This document shows, piece by piece, positions 17,601-32,723 of a stretch of DNA of 34,022 nucleotides (position 1 is the first letter of the stretch; each line of letters begins with the position of its first letter). The position numbers and the translations under genes are program-made. The notes below the pieces were generated by a model. It saw nothing but the letters and a program-made list of their open reading frames with translations. It ran no database searches and was not told where the DNA came from. Source of the DNA: a virus; the IMG/VR virus record IMGVR_UViG_3300028044_000037, positions 1 through 34,022 of that record. One strand, given 5' to 3'.

Positions 17601-19617
17601 GATTGGCGGTGCTTTTAAGTACATGGAAACATCGCTGGTCGATTTCTTAATTCCAAGTATTTATGAATTTGCAACGGCAAGCGACAAGACTGCCTCCGAC
17701 ATTCTGAAGCGTTTGGCTAATAGCATTTCAGGCGTAAATCAAGCGTTTGAGGTTCTTGGTTACAACTTGTATGAAGTCTCATTGCAAAGCGCTAGTGCGG
17801 CATCCAAGCTGGTCGATTTGTTTGGTGGTCTTGAGAACTTTGCAAAAACCACCACTTTCTATTATGAAAACTTTTACAGCGCACAAGAAAAAATCAATTT
17901 TCAAACAGAACAACTGACAAAGATATTTAGTTCTTTTGGTCTTGTTTTGCCAGAGAGCAATGCTGCTTTCCGGCAATTGGTTGAAACTGTACAAGCTGCC
18001 GGAAACGATCAGTTGTTTGCAACGCTTGTGCAACTTGCTCCAGCTTTCAATACATTGCAAAAAGCAATGGAACAAGTATCTTCTTCAATTATTCAGCAAA
18101 GAACTCAATTAACGTCCGATCTTTTCAAGTTGATTGGCGATGAGACATATCTCCGTGCAGAAGAACGCAAAGCAATTGATGAATCAAATCTTGCCTTGTT
18201 TGATCAAATTAATGCTTTAAAAGACGCTCAATCCGCTATGAATAGCGCGAACGCTGCGGTTGAAAATGCATTAAGCGATTTAGAAAGTTCGATTAAAGAA
18301 GAAAGCAAAAAAATAGAAGATTCAATTCAGAACCAATTAAATGCATCTCTTGAGTCTTTAAAAAATCAGTTTGATTCATTGACTGAAAATATTAATGAGC
18401 AAATAAGTACTCTTCAAACTCAAAAGCAAGTTGCATCAGAAACATTAAATGGCTTGCGGTCAATATTTAACTTTTTAAGCGATCAAGTTCGTGACATTAC
18501 TGGACTAATGCAACCAGCGCAAGTTGCTGCTCAAGGTTTGGCTTTTGTTGCTCAAGCTGTTCGCAATGTTCAAGCTACAGGATACTTGCCCGATCCAGAT
18601 GAATTGCGTCAAGCAGTAAATTCTGCTCGCACAGGTTTGGGTGGTGAATCGTTTGGCTCTGCGTTTGAAATGAGAAGGGCAAATTTACAGTTTGCCAATC
18701 AGTTGACGATACTTGCAGATGTTGCAGCTACTCAATCAAATAGCGCAGAAGATCAAATTGAAAAAGCAGATGAGCAAATTGAACTGCTTAGATTGCAACT
18801 TGAGCAAGCCAAACAGCAATATGATCAAAACGTAATCAATGAGCGTAATTTTTACAATGCACAGCTAACCAGTCAGCAAGCGCAGCTTAATGCTTTGCTT
18901 GGCGTTAATTCTGGAGTTTTAAGTGTTAGCTCTGCCATTCAAGCATTGGCTATAGCAATGAATGCACAATCGGCTGCTAGTGCGGCGCTGCTGACACAAT
19001 CACAACAACAGGCGGCGGCGGCAACAACCATAGCCACAACAACGCCAACAATGACTTCCTTTGAGCAAAGCGTCAATGATACATATCAGCGACTGCTTGG
19101 ACGTACCGTGGACGTTGCTGGGTTGCAATATTGGAAAGGAACAGGGCAAAACATCTCTCAAATTGAATCCAATATTAAACTTGGTTCTGAATATCGTGAA
19201 GTTGAAATTAAGAAAATGTATCGGGATATTCTTGGTCGTGAAGCTGATGCTTCTGGACTTGCGTATTGGCTCAATGATAAATCGACATTAGATCAAATCA
19301 GACAAAATTTAATGCTTACCAAAGCAGCCGGACAATTTGCTGAAGGCGGATTCTATCCTGGTGGCATGGCTCTGGTTGGCGAGGAGGGTCCTGAACTTAT
19401 CAACTTTAATCGCCCAGGTCAGGTCTACACAGCATCAGAAACTCGTGACATCATGTCTAGTAGCGCAGATTCATCTAACGAAATTCGCCAGTTGCGCGAA
19501 GAAAACAGGGCGCAATCTAGGGCAATGGTTGCTTTACAGGCTAGAATGACAAGGATACTTGAGCAGTGGGATGGCGACGGTATTCCGACCGAAAGATATG
19601 AGGGTGCAACGGCATGA
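14611..19617 (+). CDS. Tape measure protein with C-terminal DUF4214-like repeats
   Basis: At 1668 residues this is the largest gene and sets tail length; at about 1.5 angstrom per helical residue the tail would be roughly 250 nm. The N-terminal part carries the TMP_2-type motif MRMLPAQITDVVTSLASGM, then AIQQGGQLRDSFGG (about 190-225). Long coiled coils follow, then a hydrophobic glycine-zipper stretch (GAIIGAIVGGPLGAAIGGAI, about 866-885) that may enter the host membrane. Near 1484-1570 two units with RLLGRTVDVAGLQYW and ILGREADASGLAYW match the DUF4214 pattern, unusual for tape measures. The end (AEGGFYPGGMALVGEEGPE) is typical. AAGGGG precedes the ATG. Confidence 0.93.
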   Translation: MADQKIGAANIEVGVTSTVPQDLEASKKSLKDFANVTRQAGEQVQQSMKETGESVAKMEVSSENLNKTQRRTADSIIRSAQRLSSDTKAAYLDWVASQAGVTNATQAARDKLRQWEAGQTEAVSAGRKYIQMLKEQTETIGMNRREMLQYQAAQLGVSDQAAPFINKMFDTSKAFTSVEMSAKQTRQAMRMLPAQITDVVTSLASGMPMYLVAIQQGGQLRDSFGGFGNVLRGVAALISPTALAIAGLAAVGGATYIAYESAASIMREFERLLISSGNSAGLTSSQLSSMAKEISSITGTQKQASGALNAIISSNSLLGQSYTAIAAASLSWSKATGESVDKVIEKFVSLAKDPGKAMEELDGQFNFLTVSTYEQVTALVEQGRKADASRILIEALSNTMTERAPQMIEQTNAFARAWDTVASSAKKAFESLGQALSAPTLQQEYNDALKTYFDLNKQLEDLQNSPTMNVLREEEARQLQQLIENQKTYLSSINDEIMAQAKLAEESRKQAEAKKNLNAINTFLREGMTAEEKVQGQINILVEQYVALLKIENLTKLQKLAIDSAMAEQVNKIWEGYLKQIDTGKGVVKTTKDVNEEIRKQIENYRFETDLLIMNTQERERAKFIRDMESKGIEENSAAWRDNLDAFNAAMMERMQQQSYVDYLKRDQKAQQDSIKERLKSEEKYAKQVEKINDQIGQSLTDALMRGGMNAKDFLINMFKTMILRPILQPIITGFAGALGIGAAGAALAGDGTAAGSSAMGQASGLLGLASAAKTAYQFVTGGFEAIGSMASTIASTFEVAANYGTGLLSQQTAMLAAQEAGISTFSATAGLAAQYLAGIGAGVMAGQMISGDYKVGGSSYLATGGGAIIGAIVGGPLGAAIGGAIGGVINRAFGMAPKKTTSAGYDLTLSAAGAITTGFEKWEQKGGWFRSSRSGKEITAVAQETIDFFNNSALAVSASVAGMSKMFGASLDNINNFSLDIVIETLGATKEQIEEQIGGAFKYMETSLVDFLIPSIYEFATASDKTASDILKRLANSISGVNQAFEVLGYNLYEVSLQSASAASKLVDLFGGLENFAKTTTFYYENFYSAQEKINFQTEQLTKIFSSFGLVLPESNAAFRQLVETVQAAGNDQLFATLVQLAPAFNTLQKAMEQVSSSIIQQRTQLTSDLFKLIGDETYLRAEERKAIDESNLALFDQINALKDAQSAMNSANAAVENALSDLESSIKEESKKIEDSIQNQLNASLESLKNQFDSLTENINEQISTLQTQKQVASETLNGLRSIFNFLSDQVRDITGLMQPAQVAAQGLAFVAQAVRNVQATGYLPDPDELRQAVNSARTGLGGESFGSAFEMRRANLQFANQLTILADVAATQSNSAEDQIEKADEQIELLRLQLEQAKQQYDQNVINERNFYNAQLTSQQAQLNALLGVNSGVLSVSSAIQALAIAMNAQSAASAALLTQSQQQAAAATTIATTTPTMTSFEQSVNDTYQRLLGRTVDVAGLQYWKGTGQNISQIESNIKLGSEYREVEIKKMYRDILGREADASGLAYWLNDKSTLDQIRQNLMLTKAAGQFAEGGFYPGGMALVGEEGPELINFNRPGQVYTASETRDIMSSSADSSNEIRQLREENRAQSRAMVALQARMTRILEQWDGDGIPTERYEGATA

Positions 19618-20564
19618 GTACTGATGTCAACGCTTTGACGATTGTCCGTCCTTTAAGTGTTACGGACAGCATTCTGGACGTTTCTGGTTCACCACCAGCA
19701 ACGAACGTGCCAGAAAACGATTATCCTGCTTGGTCGGCAGGAACGACTTACGCTGCCGGAGACAGAGTAATTTTGACTAGCACTCATCGAGTGTACGAGT
19801 CACTGCTGTCCGGCAATACGGGCAACGATCCGACCATGCTCTCAAGCCCTGTGTATTGGATTGAGGTTGGACCGACAAACCGCTGGGCTTGTCTTGATAC
19901 ATCTGTATCAACTCAGACAGTGCAAGCCAATAATATTACTTACAGGTTAATACCAGCGCAGGCAATCAATAGCGTTGCTGTATTGAATATTATTAGCGCC
20001 AATCAATTGACAGTCAGAATGATAAGCCCAGGGACAGGATCGCCAGGCATTGTTTACGAAAAGGTTATTGATTTGACTGGGTTGCCACTAGCATCGGGGT
20101 GGTGGGAATGGTTTTATGGCGCTAAAATCGTACCGTCGCAGTCTATCTTGCTTGATTTACCTTCTTATACTGATTGCGAATTAGAGATTGAATTGCTTGG
20201 TGGCTCTGATTTGGCGGTGGGTGTGATCCTAATTGGTCAGCAGCAGAACTTTGGTATTGGCATCAAGTATGGCGCAAGGGTAGGCATTCAAGACTACTCA
20301 CGCAAAGAGACCAATGAGTTTGGCGATACTGTGCTAGTGCAAAGAGCTTTTGCGAAACGTGCGAATTTTGATTTGTTTTTAAATCGGCAAGAAGTTGATT
20401 CTTTCCAGAATGCTTTAAGTACAATACGAGCAACGCCTGTGCTGTGGATTGGTTCGACGCAATATGAATCCACAACGCTGTTTGGTTTTTACAAGAATTT
20501 TGACATATTGATTAGTTACCCTAATCATTCCGATTGCGAACTTGAGATCGAAGGACTTATATAA
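19614..20564 (+). CDS. Tail tip protein with small carbohydrate-binding-like module
   Basis: A 316-residue protein after the tape measure (ATGA overlap). Residues about 38-88 form a small aromatic module (YPAWSAGTTYAAGDRVI, HRVYESLLSGNTG, PVYWIEVG) like the CBM5/12 chitin-binding-type domains of phage tails. The C-terminal half has YGARVGIQDYSRKETNEFG, ATPVLWIGSTQYESTTLFGF and ends SDCELEIEGLI. This pattern is common in phage tail proteins next to the tape measure. It probably belongs to the distal tail and may carry the receptor-binding protein. Exact role unproven. Confidence 0.7.
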   Translation: MSTDVNALTIVRPLSVTDSILDVSGSPPATNVPENDYPAWSAGTTYAAGDRVILTSTHRVYESLLSGNTGNDPTMLSSPVYWIEVGPTNRWACLDTSVSTQTVQANNITYRLIPAQAINSVAVLNIISANQLTVRMISPGTGSPGIVYEKVIDLTGLPLASGWWEWFYGAKIVPSQSILLDLPSYTDCELEIELLGGSDLAVGVILIGQQQNFGIGIKYGARVGIQDYSRKETNEFGDTVLVQRAFAKRANFDLFLNRQEVDSFQNALSTIRATPVLWIGSTQYESTTLFGFYKNFDILISYPNHSDCELEIEGLI

Positions 20565-22177
20565 TGGCTATCACTCCACTGCCAGCAGCACCAGAGCCAA
20601 CCGACAGTACAGCTGAATTCAATTCTAAAGCATTCGCTTGGGTTGCTGCGCTTGATACTTTCACAACCGAAGCCAATGCGCTTGAATCAAATGTAAACTC
20701 TCTTGAGTCTGCAACCGCATCTAATGCAAGTCAAGCGGCATCTAGTGCAACACAAGCATCTGAATTTTCAGCAACCGCATTGTTTCATGCTCAAGCTGCC
20801 GCTGCTAATACTAATGCTCCTCTTTGGGTTTCTGGAACAACGTATGCAATTGGTGCTTTAGTTTATAGCCCAGCTAACGGCAGGACATACCGCAGACGAA
20901 CTGCTGGTGCTGGAACAACCGATCCATCTTTAGATGCAACAAATTGGTTGTTGCTTCAAAATGAAGTGACAGTGCAATCGTTTTCTTGGAACAGCCTGAC
21001 CAGCACCCCAAATTCAATTTATGGGCAAAGCCGTGTTGCTGCTGGCGTCCACGACAAAATGCGTGGCTGCACATTAAATGATGACGGAACTGTCAATTAT
21101 TATTTGCTTGATACGGATTGGGCATTTAAGGAAGATGGTACTGCGTCAGATTTGGGCGGCGCTGATGGTCAAGTAATGGTAGAAATTCCAAAGTTTTATT
21201 ACCGAATTGAAAGGTCTGGAACGGTTACAACTTGGAAAGTTTCTGCTGTAGCACAATCTGGGTTTGACGTTCACCCTGCATTTATTAAAGATGGCACAGA
21301 GGTTGATTACCGCTACTATGGTGCTTATGATGCTTGCGTATTAGATGTAAGTTCGTCGCCTCAAGTATATATTTCTGGTCTTAACTACGATAATAACGAC
21401 GGTGCTAACGGCGTTGGCGTAAATGTTACCGCAACGACAGGTGATAAATTAGGTTCTGTTGCTGGTATATATCCAATGACAGGTCTTACTCGTGCCGAGT
21501 TTAGAACATTAGCGGCAAACCGTGGCACAGGATGGAGACAAGTTGATTTTACTTTGTGGTCTGCTGTGCAGATGTTGTACCTGATTGAGTACCAGTCGTT
21601 CTACTCGCAAAATTTGTTAGGTGCGGGCAACACTAACGGTTCATATTTATCACCTAGCGGCAATCAAAACGATAGCCCGCATACCATTGCAGGTGCGGGC
21701 AATAGTATTGGAAACAGCTCTACTAATACAACTAGCGGCGCAGGTGTTAATGCTAAACCTGGTACGAGCTTTATGAAGTACCGTGGTATTGAAAACCTTT
21801 ACGGCAACATATTTAATTGGGCAGATGGCATCAACGTTAATGTGACAGCTAATGGAAATGTTCATGTGACAAACAATTGTGCTGATTTTGCTGATAACAC
21901 AAACACTAATATGACGCTAATTACTTCTAGTTTGCCGACAGCATCTGGTTACATTAGCGATTTGCTACCAGCAGACCCGTATATGTTGCCAAAAACTAAC
22001 AGCGGCGGCTCAACAACTTACATAACAGATTATCATTTTGCATCAGCGTTATCTAATCGGGTCGTCCTTGTCGGCGGTTCTGCGTTTAATGGCGCTGTTG
22101 CGGGTGCGTTCTGTCTGGATTCGTCTTATGATTCGTCGGGTGCTTTTCGTAATTTTGGCGCGCGGCTCGCTTTTTAA
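20564..22177 (+). CDS. Receptor-binding/tail fibre protein, DGR target with C-type-lectin-like end
   Basis: A 537-residue protein. An Ala-rich helical stretch (about 45-85) is followed by a CBM-like module (PLWVSGTTYAIGALVYSP, NGRTYRRR) repeating that of the previous gene. The C-terminal 300 residues look like the formylglycine-enzyme/C-type-lectin fold of DGR targets: GWRQVDFTLWSAVQMLYLIE, RGIENLYGNIFNWADG and a final RVVLVGGSAFNGAVAGAF. The last 40 residues hold the variable region (VR), whose template copy lies downstream at 22222-22290. It should sit at the tail tip and contact the host; VR side chains line the predicted binding face. Confidence 0.85.
   Translation: MAITPLPAAPEPTDSTAEFNSKAFAWVAALDTFTTEANALESNVNSLESATASNASQAASSATQASEFSATALFHAQAAAANTNAPLWVSGTTYAIGALVYSPANGRTYRRRTAGAGTTDPSLDATNWLLLQNEVTVQSFSWNSLTSTPNSIYGQSRVAAGVHDKMRGCTLNDDGTVNYYLLDTDWAFKEDGTASDLGGADGQVMVEIPKFYYRIERSGTVTTWKVSAVAQSGFDVHPAFIKDGTEVDYRYYGAYDACVLDVSSSPQVYISGLNYDNNDGANGVGVNVTATTGDKLGSVAGIYPMTGLTRAEFRTLAANRGTGWRQVDFTLWSAVQMLYLIEYQSFYSQNLLGAGNTNGSYLSPSGNQNDSPHTIAGAGNSIGNSSTNTTSGAGVNAKPGTSFMKYRGIENLYGNIFNWADGINVNVTANGNVHVTNNCADFADNTNTNMTLITSSLPTASGYISDLLPADPYMLPKTNSGGSTTYITDYHFASALSNRVVLVGGSAFNGAVAGAFCLDSSYDSSGAFRNFGARLAF
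22059..22127 (+). repeat. Variable region (VR) of a diversity-generating retroelement
   Basis: These 69 bases, encoding residues about 499-522 of the receptor-binding protein, align without gaps to 22222-22290. Seventeen positions differ, all where the downstream copy has A: eight A to G, six A to T, three A to C. All 49 non-A positions are identical. TR AAT codons became CTT, TCT, TTT, GTT, GAT and TCT here. This adenine-only pattern is the hallmark of mutagenic retrohoming by a DGR reverse transcriptase. Confidence 0.93.
22157..22170 (+). other. GC-rich end of VR, candidate initiation of mutagenic homing site
   Basis: Thirteen of 14 bases are G or C, in the last codons of the gene and just downstream of the VR core. 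In Bordetella phage BPP-1 a G/C-only run at the end of VR is part of the IMH element where cDNA integration starts. The match is by position and composition only. Confidence 0.4.
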
Positions 22178-22221
22178 TAGTGCAATGCAGCAAAGGGGTT
22201 AAGTTTTGATGAAAATTATTC

Positions 22222-22290
22222 AGGTCGTCAATGTCAGCAGTAATGCGAATAATGGCGCTAATGCAGGTACGTTCTATCTGAATTCGAATT
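22222..22290 (+). repeat. Template repeat (TR) of a diversity-generating retroelement
   Basis: This non-target copy contains 20 A in 69 bases, many in AAT codons when read in the VR frame, as in known DGR templates. It begins about 95 bases after the stop of the target gene, where TRs usually lie. After 22290 it no longer aligns directly to VR. A shorter match (about 22287-22304 with 22151-22168) reappears if 27 bases are assumed lost from TR. The rest of 22178-22350 shows no other gene or clear signal beyond a 33-codon frame around TR. Confidence 0.9.
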
Positions 22291-22350
22291 GTGGCGCAAC
22301 CATACACTAAAATTACGCAGTAAATTTCCTAAACAATTAAGAGGTGCGAT

Positions 22351-22677
22351 ATGAAAGTTTATTCAGGTGAATCATTAGAAGTATATGCAGTTTCAGGTCA
22401 AGAATTTCGTATACGCTGGAATATTCAGGAAGTATCTGTGCCATCAATGGACGATGAGACACGCACTCAATGGGAAGCAAATGAGGCATTGTGTTCAATT
22501 TTTGATAATCGCAGCCAGATCATTCAAAAAATTATTGGTTCGGTGCATGACATTGGCGATGAGATTGCCATGATTAATAACCAATTTACTCGTAAAACAG
22601 ATTACGAAAATTATCAATCTTTTCGTGCCCAAGCAAAAGCATTAGCTGACGGTTGGCTAAATCAAATAATTATTTAA
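22351..22677 (+). CDS. Hypothetical protein downstream of the DGR template
   Basis: A 108-residue acidic protein with an N-terminal beta part (SGQEFRIRWNIQEVSVPSMD) and a helical C-terminal part (GDEIAMINNQ, TDYENYQSFRAQAKALADGW). The ATG follows AAGAGGTG. The C-terminal pattern recurs in phage proteins near tail fibre genes, with no known function. It is not a reverse transcriptase. Although it is of Avd-like length and in the Avd position, it is acidic and partly beta, unlike the basic four-helix Avd proteins. A fibre chaperone is possible but unproven. Confidence 0.6.
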   Translation: MKVYSGESLEVYAVSGQEFRIRWNIQEVSVPSMDDETRTQWEANEALCSIFDNRSQIIQKIIGSVHDIGDEIAMINNQFTRKTDYENYQSFRAQAKALADGWLNQIII

Positions 22678-30530: not shown

Positions 30531-31528
30531 CCAACTACCCTCGCACCAAATGCGTCTTTAAATTCCTGTGCAATACCAAGCGCACAAGCCTCTGGGTTTG
30601 CTAATATCTCTGAAGCGGTATAACCAGCCTGACAGTTCGCAATATCTCCGTCTGGCGTGTGCCAGATCACTTTGTCTTCTTTGTCCGTATACTTCCAAGG
30701 AACGATGTCAGGATGAATTACGCCATCAGTGCAGCCTTTGCGCTGGAACTCAACTGGAATACCGTCAGAATTATGCTTCTCACAGCGCCAAGTCGAATCT
30801 TCTTTGGCTGTCGAATGAGCGCAAGTCCGGCAACTAAACGTCTTAGGTAGCTCTTGCTTATGGCAAAAAGAATGATAATTACAAAACTTACATTCAAACC
30901 AGCTTGGGTCAGTAGATAACGGAGGTGGCATACGATCATCAAGAGCAATCCTTTTCCCTCTATCCACGTATTTTTGCGCTAAGTCTTTGTCTAAGCGCAC
31001 ACGCTCGGTATAAATCTCGTCATTGTCTTTGCAAATGCTCACATAAAGACCTCGGTCAATATTAAGACCCAACATATAAATTTGCATCTGGACATAGTGC
31101 ATGGGCTTAGACTTCTCTACGCCTTTCTTAACAAGATCATTAAACGATTTTAAGCTATGGGTCTTTATTTCGATCACGTGAGGACGCTTAGGCGACTCAG
31201 GCACTCCTGACAGAGCCACTCCATCTGCTGAACCAGATACAAAGGCATCAAAGTTTACGCGCGTCTGTGCGCCTCTGACGTCTATTCCAATCGCACGTAG
31301 ATCGCTAATGATCGTTGTTTCCTCTAATTGACCACGCCTAAACAATCTCAAGATTCGACCTTTAAATTGTTCAGGCATAACCCAACGAAAGTTAAGCCAC
31401 AAGTATCGTTCGCAGTGGTGGCCGAGCTGACTAGCGCCTAAGTGCGACCTATTTTCTGATTGACGTTGCTCGTGGTGTTGGTCAATTAAGTTGGCTATGG
31501 TGTTTTGGGGTTCAGGGATTAGTGACAT
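30527..31528 (-). CDS. PD-(D/E)XK exonuclease with probable Fe-S cluster (Cas4/AddB-like)
   Basis: A 333-residue nuclease. The PD-(D/E)XK core is GSADGV (Asp102), VIEIKTHS (Glu120, Lys122) and a following QMQIYM (Gln near 147). Cys39 together with C213-x2-C216-x5-C222 gives the four-Cys iron-sulphur pattern known from Cas4 and AddB nucleases. A further set of Cys (233, 236, 249, 266) suggests a zinc-binding tail. It probably trims DNA ends for recombination or replication. AAAAGGAATAAGA precedes the ATG; it overlaps both neighbours. Confidence 0.85.
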   Translation of the reverse strand: MSLIPEPQNTIANLIDQHHEQRQSENRSHLGASQLGHHCERYLWLNFRWVMPEQFKGRILRLFRRGQLEETTIISDLRAIGIDVRGAQTRVNFDAFVSGSADGVALSGVPESPKRPHVIEIKTHSLKSFNDLVKKGVEKSKPMHYVQMQIYMLGLNIDRGLYVSICKDNDEIYTERVRLDKDLAQKYVDRGKRIALDDRMPPPLSTDPSWFECKFCNYHSFCHKQELPKTFSCRTCAHSTAKEDSTWRCEKHNSDGIPVEFQRKGCTDGVIHPDIVPWKYTDKEDKVIWHTPDGDIANCQAGYTASEILANPEACALGIAQEFKDAFGARVVG

Positions 31529-32723
31529 TCTTATTCCTTTTCATTTGCATAAATTTTGCATAAGCAGGGCTTTTAGGTTGCGTCATACCTAAACCTTTAC
31601 ACCACCAATCGTTTCGCAACAACACTTTGCAAAGCCTCCGCCAAGACGGAACCCAATGCTCATTTTCCAATTCCTTTGGGGCGCTGTCTGGTAAATTGCC
31701 TACGTAACCTCTTTTTCGCCAACCTTTAATATGATCTTTAAACCGCTCTACATAATGATCTCTACTAACCGCAGGAAGGGTGCTTAACAATAAATTACAA
31801 AAAGTTTTATACGTATGATTTGGTGGCAATGTAATTTTGTTATAACCGTTTACATTGCCAGTTTCGTGTATATACAAAGAGCCACTATTTGCACCATTAA
31901 CCCTTGCTACAACTTTAAACCAAGACTCAGGCTCAAGTATGTGATAAAGCCAAAGGCCACGCCTTTGATCGTCACCGTAAGGTTGACACAATCTTTGTTG
32001 CGACAACGGCACACCTGCTTGATGCATCAAATCATAAATTGTGTTGTAACATTTTGACGAAATACGGTTATATACCCAAATATCTTTAGTGCGCCAATCG
32101 TAAATTGGGTAAATGTTGTATACATTTGATACAACTTTTGTTGTCCAACGCTTATTGTTAAATGTTTCTTTATCTGCAATAGCAATTGTTCTAAACCGAT
32201 TTAGGCTTTCATCGCAACGAATACCGACAAACGTTGCTAATGGTTGGCCTTCAGAATACCAATCAGCAAACATAACAATAAATTCTTCAAACTCTAATCT
32301 TGGCACAAAAAACGGATAAAAATCGTTTTCATTAACAACGCCATTCATTTTTGGCATTGGTCTAACCCAATCTGCTTGCCGTTCCTTATCCCAACAAGTC
32401 CATGTTGGCTGATATGTACTAACTGCGTTTCGCAATTTAATTGGCAAACAAATCCAATGCAAATCAATGTAATCACGGTAAAGATCAAACATTTCTTTGG
32501 CGTGGTCGGCTGTTGCTTTGTATTGCGCCTCAAAATCAATCAACATAACGCCTATTTTTCTATTGCGTAAAATAGCCTCTTCCATGACAAGATGAAACAT
32601 AACGGAAGAATCTTTACCACCAGAAAATGAAAGTAAAATTTTATCGAAATTGTCAAATGTATAAGCAATACGCTCTTTAGCAGAGGTAAGCACGTTTTTA
32701 GGTATTGGTTTTTTTAGTTCCAT
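31512..32723 (-). CDS. IbrA-like PP-loop (PAPS reductase-type, DUF3440) protein
   Basis: A 403-residue protein of the adenine nucleotide alpha-hydrolase fold. The PP-loop SFSGGKDSS is at 32-40. Other family elements are VMLIDFEAQY, FVGIRCDESLNRFRT, PIYDWRTKDIWVY and SQQRLCQPYGDD. In E. coli and prophages the homologue IbrA works with the ParB-like IbrB and activates expression of other prophage genes; the biochemical reaction is not settled. The gene directly follows its IbrB-like partner. Base composition is similar to its neighbours. Confidence 0.85.
   Translation of the reverse strand: MELKKPIPKNVLTSAKERIAYTFDNFDKILLSFSGGKDSSVMFHLVMEEAILRNRKIGVMLIDFEAQYKATADHAKEMFDLYRDYIDLHWICLPIKLRNAVSTYQPTWTCWDKERQADWVRPMPKMNGVVNENDFYPFFVPRLEFEEFIVMFADWYSEGQPLATFVGIRCDESLNRFRTIAIADKETFNNKRWTTKVVSNVYNIYPIYDWRTKDIWVYNRISSKCYNTIYDLMHQAGVPLSQQRLCQPYGDDQRRGLWLYHILEPESWFKVVARVNGANSGSLYIHETGNVNGYNKITLPPNHTYKTFCNLLLSTLPAVSRDHYVERFKDHIKGWRKRGYVGNLPDSAPKELENEHWVPSWRRLCKVLLRNDWWCKGLGMTQPKSPAYAKFMQMKRNKNVTNP

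What the first reader, a model, noticed from the sequence alone, without database searches (positions are those of the whole stretch)
22059..22290. Diversity-generating retroelement: adenine-specific VR/TR pair in the receptor-binding gene
A 69-base stretch at the 3' end of the tail fibre gene (22059-22127) and a copy after its stop (22222-22290) differ at 17 positions, and all 17 are A in the downstream copy (of 20 A present). The 49 other positions are identical. If 17 differences fell at random, having all on those 20 sites would have a chance of about 1 in 10^12 or less (hand estimate). Eight are A to G, six A to T, three A to C. TR is full of AAT codons that become Leu, Ser, Phe, Val and Asp in VR. 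The target protein end looks like the C-type-lectin fold of known DGR targets. The phage probably diversifies its host-binding surface this way.
Basis: partly seen in the sequence, partly recalled or inferred. Interest (0 to 1): 0.95.

Follow-up and report, generated by a model that had tools for sequence, protein, structure and literature searches.

The report
Fossil of a phage mutation engine
This phage carries the unmistakable mutation pattern of a diversity-generating retroelement at the tip of its tail gene, but a 1.1-kb deletion has removed the reverse transcriptase and part of the template, so the tip is probably frozen; related phages lost the same engine independently several times.

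Summary
The 69-base VR (22059-22127) and TR (22222-22290) differ at 17 positions, all of them A in the TR; P = 2e-13. The longest such A-tolerant match in 40 randomised sequences had 15 non-A identities, against 51 here.

This is a diversity-generating retroelement (DGR), but a broken one. No reverse transcriptase (RT) exists in the 34-kb record. More than 55 relatives keep the full cassette at this site: target, ~115-bp VR, ~115-bp TR, RT, small downstream gene. In the window the TR breaks off after 68 bases and runs straight into the last 21 codons plus stop of the RT gene (22289-22354). A ~1.1-kb deletion therefore removed the 3' end of the TR, the priming spacer and about 94% of the RT.

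Three relatives carry different deletion scars at the same site (L073, L079, L112). Others have the two flanking genes only 14-97 bp apart. On a target-gene tree, presence or absence of the cassette changes at least 14 times. DGR fossils were reported before (Nanoarchaeota, Treponema), so this is a known kind; the scar and repeated losses are the useful part.

The parts
20564..22177 (+). target gene, 537 aa tail protein; C-terminal C-type-lectin-like DGR variable domain (residues ~138-537)
   Evidence: PHROG 5302 'tail protein' E=1.2e-84; AlphaFold2 model pLDDT 89.9, pTM 0.92; Foldseek to TaqVP 5vf4 E=1e-10 and Mtd 1yu1 E=1.7e-3
22059..22127 (+). VR, part with surviving template
   Evidence: 17 differences from TR, all at template A
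22128..22174 (+). rest of the ancestral VR, template lost; includes IMH-like G+C-rich end at about 22157-22170
   Evidence: aligned to TR 3' half of relatives: against L001, 9 of 13 A sites differ but 4 of 34 non-A sites (P=2.5e-4); most intact relatives have VR/TR matches of about 110-130 bp ending here
22222..22289 (+). TR fossil: 5' part of the template repeat
   Evidence: 90% identical to the TR of L001 over 70 bp; ends where relatives continue AATGATTC...
22289..22290 (.). deletion junction: ~1.09-1.11 kb missing relative to seven intact relatives
22289..22354 (+). RT stub: last 21 codons and stop of the DGR reverse transcriptase, LWRNHTLKLRSKFPKQLRGAI*; also carries the likely ribosome-binding site of the next gene
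   Evidence: frame 22286: E-LWRNHTLKLRSKFPKQLRGAI; relatives LWRKHTHSLRSTFPKQLRGAV / LWRTHTNKLRSAFPKQLRGAI; same ATGA overlap with the next gene as in L001
22351..22677 (+). conserved small gene, 108 aa, follows the DGR in relatives (tail-fibre-assembly-like by position only)
   Evidence: homologues 62-68% identical directly after RT in L006, L012-L014; lies 1240-1416 bp after the target in intact loci, 177 bp here

Best explanation
The locus is the fossil of a recently inactivated phage DGR. In the ancestor, a reverse transcriptase encoded between the TR and the 22351 gene copied the TR RNA with errors opposite A, and the cDNA replaced the VR at the 3' end of the tail gene, varying its receptor-binding tip. 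A ~1.1-kb deletion from inside the TR to codon ~327 of the RT gene then removed IMH*, the priming spacer and the catalytic enzyme. It left 68 bases of template and the last 21 RT codons, which hold the likely ribosome-binding site of the next gene. The target protein remains intact and displays one fixed variant. Shown: VR/TR signature, absence of RT, the scar, intact syntenic relatives, lectin-like fold. Inferred: past activity in this lineage by the standard DGR route, present inactivity, role in receptor binding.
For: A-only differences, P=2e-13. No RT in the record. Syntenic relatives L001, L005-L010 carry full RTs (YCDD and GNYTSQ motifs), in L001, L006, L007 and L008 directly before a homologue of the 22351 gene. 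RT C-terminus fused to the TR in the window. Deletion size 1091-1106 bp against seven relatives. The VR half without template still shows the A bias against relatives' TRs. Intact relatives show activity: TR pairs differ by 0-1 bases while their VRs differ by 15-33, mostly at template A. RT and TR are needed for retrohoming in BPP-1, and cDNA synthesis is primed from the spacer at IMH* (PMC12875486). Fold matches DGR variable proteins.
Against: The record is a linear metagenomic contig and may lack part of the genome, so an RT elsewhere is not excluded. A misassembly of the junction cannot be excluded without reads, though it does not lie at a VR/TR repeat collapse and similar scars occur in other contigs. 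All 49 non-A sites still match, so there is no drift yet to prove inactivity; the 95% upper bound on divergence is about 6%.
Confidence: 0.92

Rival explanations
1. An active DGR whose RT acts in trans, from the unsequenced part of this genome, a resident prophage or a co-infecting relative.
For: Remote DGR targets are known (PMC8144416). The record is a fragment; phages with related terminases mostly have 37-47 kb genomes against 34 kb here. VR and TR still match at all 49 non-A sites.
Against: The RT has been lost from its canonical place. The surviving template lacks IMH* and the spacer where cDNA synthesis starts (PMC12875486), so this TR could hardly serve even a foreign RT. No second TR is in the window.
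Confidence: 0.05
2. Assembly artefact: the contig skips a 1.1-kb RT segment present in the real phage.
For: DGR loci are hard to assemble. Close relative L001 has an odd VR-TR junction that may be such an artefact.
Against: The junction joins TR to an RT end that is not a repeat of it (at most a few shared bases). Three other contigs show scars at this site with different breakpoints.
Confidence: 0.03
3. Two diverged tandem repeats without a retroelement.
For: None beyond the repeat itself.
Against: Strict A bias, more than 55 relatives with RT and the same signature, RT stub.
Confidence: 0.002

Closest known systems
DGR of Bordetella phage BPP-1 (mtd-VR, avd, TR, brt)
   Same: Adenine-specific VR/TR at the 3' end of a tail receptor-binding gene; RT of relatives is homologous to Brt (33.5% identity over 91%); predicted fold matches Mtd.
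   Different: Window lacks RT, spacer and the 3' end of the TR. Avd was not sought in the relatives.
Partial DGRs ('fossils') of DUSEL4 Nanoarchaeota (PMC4372165) and target remnants in Treponema denticola (PMC4891356)
   Same: Targets left without an RT nearby (in the Nanoarchaeota with A-directed changes in the VR); loss was proposed there too.
   Different: Here a TR fragment and an RT stub survive, with a mapped deletion scar next to intact syntenic relatives, in phages.
DGRs of crAss-like phages and Psychrobacillus phage Perkons (annotated phage relatives)
   Same: Homologous target domain and RT in the same records.
   Different: Target only 25-35% identical; RT still annotated there.

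Membership tests
Diversity-generating retroelement (functional) | VR/TR pair with differences confined to template adenines | tested here: met
   17/17 at A, 0/49 at non-A
Diversity-generating retroelement (functional) | DGR-type reverse transcriptase | tested here: not met
   No RVT_1 match at E<=10 in the record; only the last 21 codons remain
Diversity-generating retroelement (functional) | full-length TR with IMH* and TR-RT spacer | tested here: not met
   TR breaks off at 22289, about 45 bases short; spacer absent
Diversity-generating retroelement (functional) | VR at the C-terminus of a C-type-lectin or Ig-fold target | tested here: met
   VR ends at the stop codon; model matches TaqVP E=1e-10, Mtd E=1.7e-3
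Diversity-generating retroelement (functional) | accessory protein (Avd or similar) | not tested
   No search for Avd homologues was made
Diversity-generating retroelement (functional) | ongoing VR variation with constant TR | not testable with these tools
   No reads; shown only for intact relatives
DGR fossil (derived from a DGR) | homologous intact cassette at the same site in relatives, and a deletion scar | tested here: met

The most novel reading that the evidence does not exclude
In this tail-gene family the DGR is repeatedly deleted (four scars with different breakpoints, at least 14 presence/absence changes on the tree) while the hypervariable target is kept intact. This may be an adaptive 'lock-in': once a variant suits a stable host, loss of the mutator fixes it, and the cassette may be regained by recombination.
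Probability: 0.2. Interest if true: 0.65.

Novelty: new member of a known kind. Interest (0 to 1): 0.45.

Why it matters
It corrects an attractive claim: a perfect VR/TR signature does not mean a working mutator. It also gives a graded series of natural DGR knock-outs in related phages, from intact through partial RT and TR fragment to nothing left between the flanking genes. That makes the question of when a phage gains by switching its hypermutation off open to testing with existing metagenomes.

Tried and rejected
A degenerate DNA pattern of the TR 3' part in viral contigs found nothing. Megablast of 25 kb against named phages found no near relative. An RT elsewhere in this record, or in the records of 19 RT-less or undetermined relatives, was sought and not found; for L073 the Pfam RT model misses the C-terminal RT remnant that a family-specific model finds. 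Pfam gives no domain for the target. A second TR or VR in the window was sought and not found. L115 and L029 first fell into odd classes in the survey: for L115 this was a misplaced target end, so it was reclassified as intact, and L029 has the RT in two adjoining pieces and was counted as intact. L064, L065, L068 and L080 lie in another gene context (a different gene follows), so they were not used as evidence of deletion.

Full report
Observation. VR 22059-22127 and TR 22222-22290 differ at 17 of 69 bases, all A in the TR (8 to G, 6 to T, 3 to C), with 49 of 49 non-A bases identical. The probability of that placement is 1.9e-13. The longest A-tolerant match in 40 Markov controls had 15 non-A identities against 51 here. 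No third copy is present.

The window is the whole IMG/VR record, 34,022 bp, a linear fragment. Its terminase is 52-56% identical to those of Pseudomonas phage PAJU2 and HK022-like phages, whose listed records are mostly 37-47 kb, so some of the genome may be missing. No reverse transcriptase was found at E<=10.

Relatives show what is missing. L001, found by the target protein, has the same gene order but with an RT of 347 codons between TR and the small gene that follows. Seven more contigs carry the same RT at 63-81% identity. The RTs contain YCDD and GNYTSQ; phage DGR RTs including Brt of BPP-1 match at 33-39% identity. In five loci with the full pair in hand (L007-L011) VR and TR are 113-117 bp, with 19-27 A sites changed and 1-3 non-A sites changed.

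The scar. Aligned to L001, the window's TR matches up to ...CTGAATTCGAAT (22289) and the next bases match the RT end: TTGTGGCGCAACCATACA..., reading LWRNHTLKLRSKFPKQLRGAI* against LWRKHTHSLRSTFPKQLRGAV*. The stop overlaps the ATG of the next gene exactly as in L001. Between these points seven relatives have 1091-1106 bp more. The deletion thus removed the TR 3' end with IMH*, the TR-RT spacer and the RT catalytic core. The stub probably survived because its last bases form the ribosome-binding site of the 22351 gene (inference from AAGAGGTGCGATATG). The VR part that has lost its template still shows the signature: against the L001 TR, 9 of 13 A sites but 4 of 34 non-A sites differ (P=2.5e-4; weaker against more distant relatives).

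Consequences. In BPP-1, cDNA synthesis is primed from the spacer at IMH*, and inactivation of RT or TR abolishes retrohoming (PMC12875486). The window lacks RT, spacer and IMH*. The target is a tail protein (PHROG 5302). Its C-terminal 400 residues are predicted with high confidence (pLDDT 89.9); the best solved match is TaqVP, a DGR variable protein (E=1e-10), then BPP-1 Mtd. Global TM-scores are modest (0.30-0.50), so I claim the fold class, not details. The most likely present state is a fixed receptor-binding tip.

Intact relatives are active or were so recently: in seven pairs the TRs differ by 0-1 bases while VRs differ by 15-33, mostly at template A.

Is the loss unique? I surveyed about 95 target relatives from viral and genome collections. 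After hand correction 57 have TR and RT. In those where the downstream gene was recognised, it starts 1240-1416 bp after the target. RT-less loci with a TR fossil are the window (177 bp), L112 (168 bp; half a TR, no RT) and L079 (392 bp; full TR, RT reduced to its C-terminus, 8 bp shared at the junction relative to L093). L073 (452 bp) keeps the full TR and RT codons 252-347. Breakpoints differ, and the four sit in separate parts of a tree of the target without its VR, each near intact relatives. About 20 further loci have neither RT nor TR with at least 1.5 kb of downstream sequence; in several the flanking genes are 14-97 bp apart. The tree needs 19 changes between cassette present and absent; for the intact group, starred branches alone force at least 14 (quick tree, long branches present). 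The direction cannot be read from such counts, but scars show loss in four cases. None of 19 records of RT-less or undetermined loci contains a Pfam-detectable RT, though these are fragments.

A crude clock: non-A mismatches between VR and TR are 42/4409 in intact loci, 5/82 in L073 and 4/46 in L112 (pooled Fisher P=1e-5), but 1/89 in L079 and 0/51 in the window. The window's loss therefore looks recent; at 0 of 49 the divergence is below about 6% (95% bound).

Known before? DGR fragments without RT were noted in Nanoarchaeota and called possible fossils (PMC4372165), and Treponema denticola has target remnants (PMC4891356). I found no paper in the held library on repeated DGR deletion in a phage family, but that library lacks most subscription journals. 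I file this as a known kind: a decayed DGR.

Noticed in passing
L001 5062-5175: The VR of L001 loses its 3' end and IMH and abuts the TR leader directly, though RT and TR are intact; the target ends in SSSPC instead of GARLAF. Either another kind of DGR decay or an assembly collapse.
   Followed up: partly
L092 2255-2725: Where relatives carry TR and RT, this contig has a gene that looks like an HNH endonuclease (by eye), between target and the conserved small gene.
   Followed up: no
L029 2074-3132: Bacteroidales contig with the DGR RT split into two adjoining pieces, perhaps a frameshift like that reported for Quimbyvirus (PMC8008677).
   Followed up: no
window 19614-20564 and 20738-21007: The gene upstream of the target and residues 59-148 of the target both match PHROG 6278, so the two tail proteins share a module.
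   Followed up: no
window 31512-32723 (-): ORF with an SGGKDS motif that looks like a PAPS-reductase/PP-loop family protein; not searched.
   Followed up: no
L002/L068, L064, L065, L080: Similar target C-termini with DGR-like VR ends but a different gene downstream, without a TR in the sequence held; one lies on an 87-kb phage contig. Suggests the hypervariable domain moves between phages without its DGR.
   Followed up: partly
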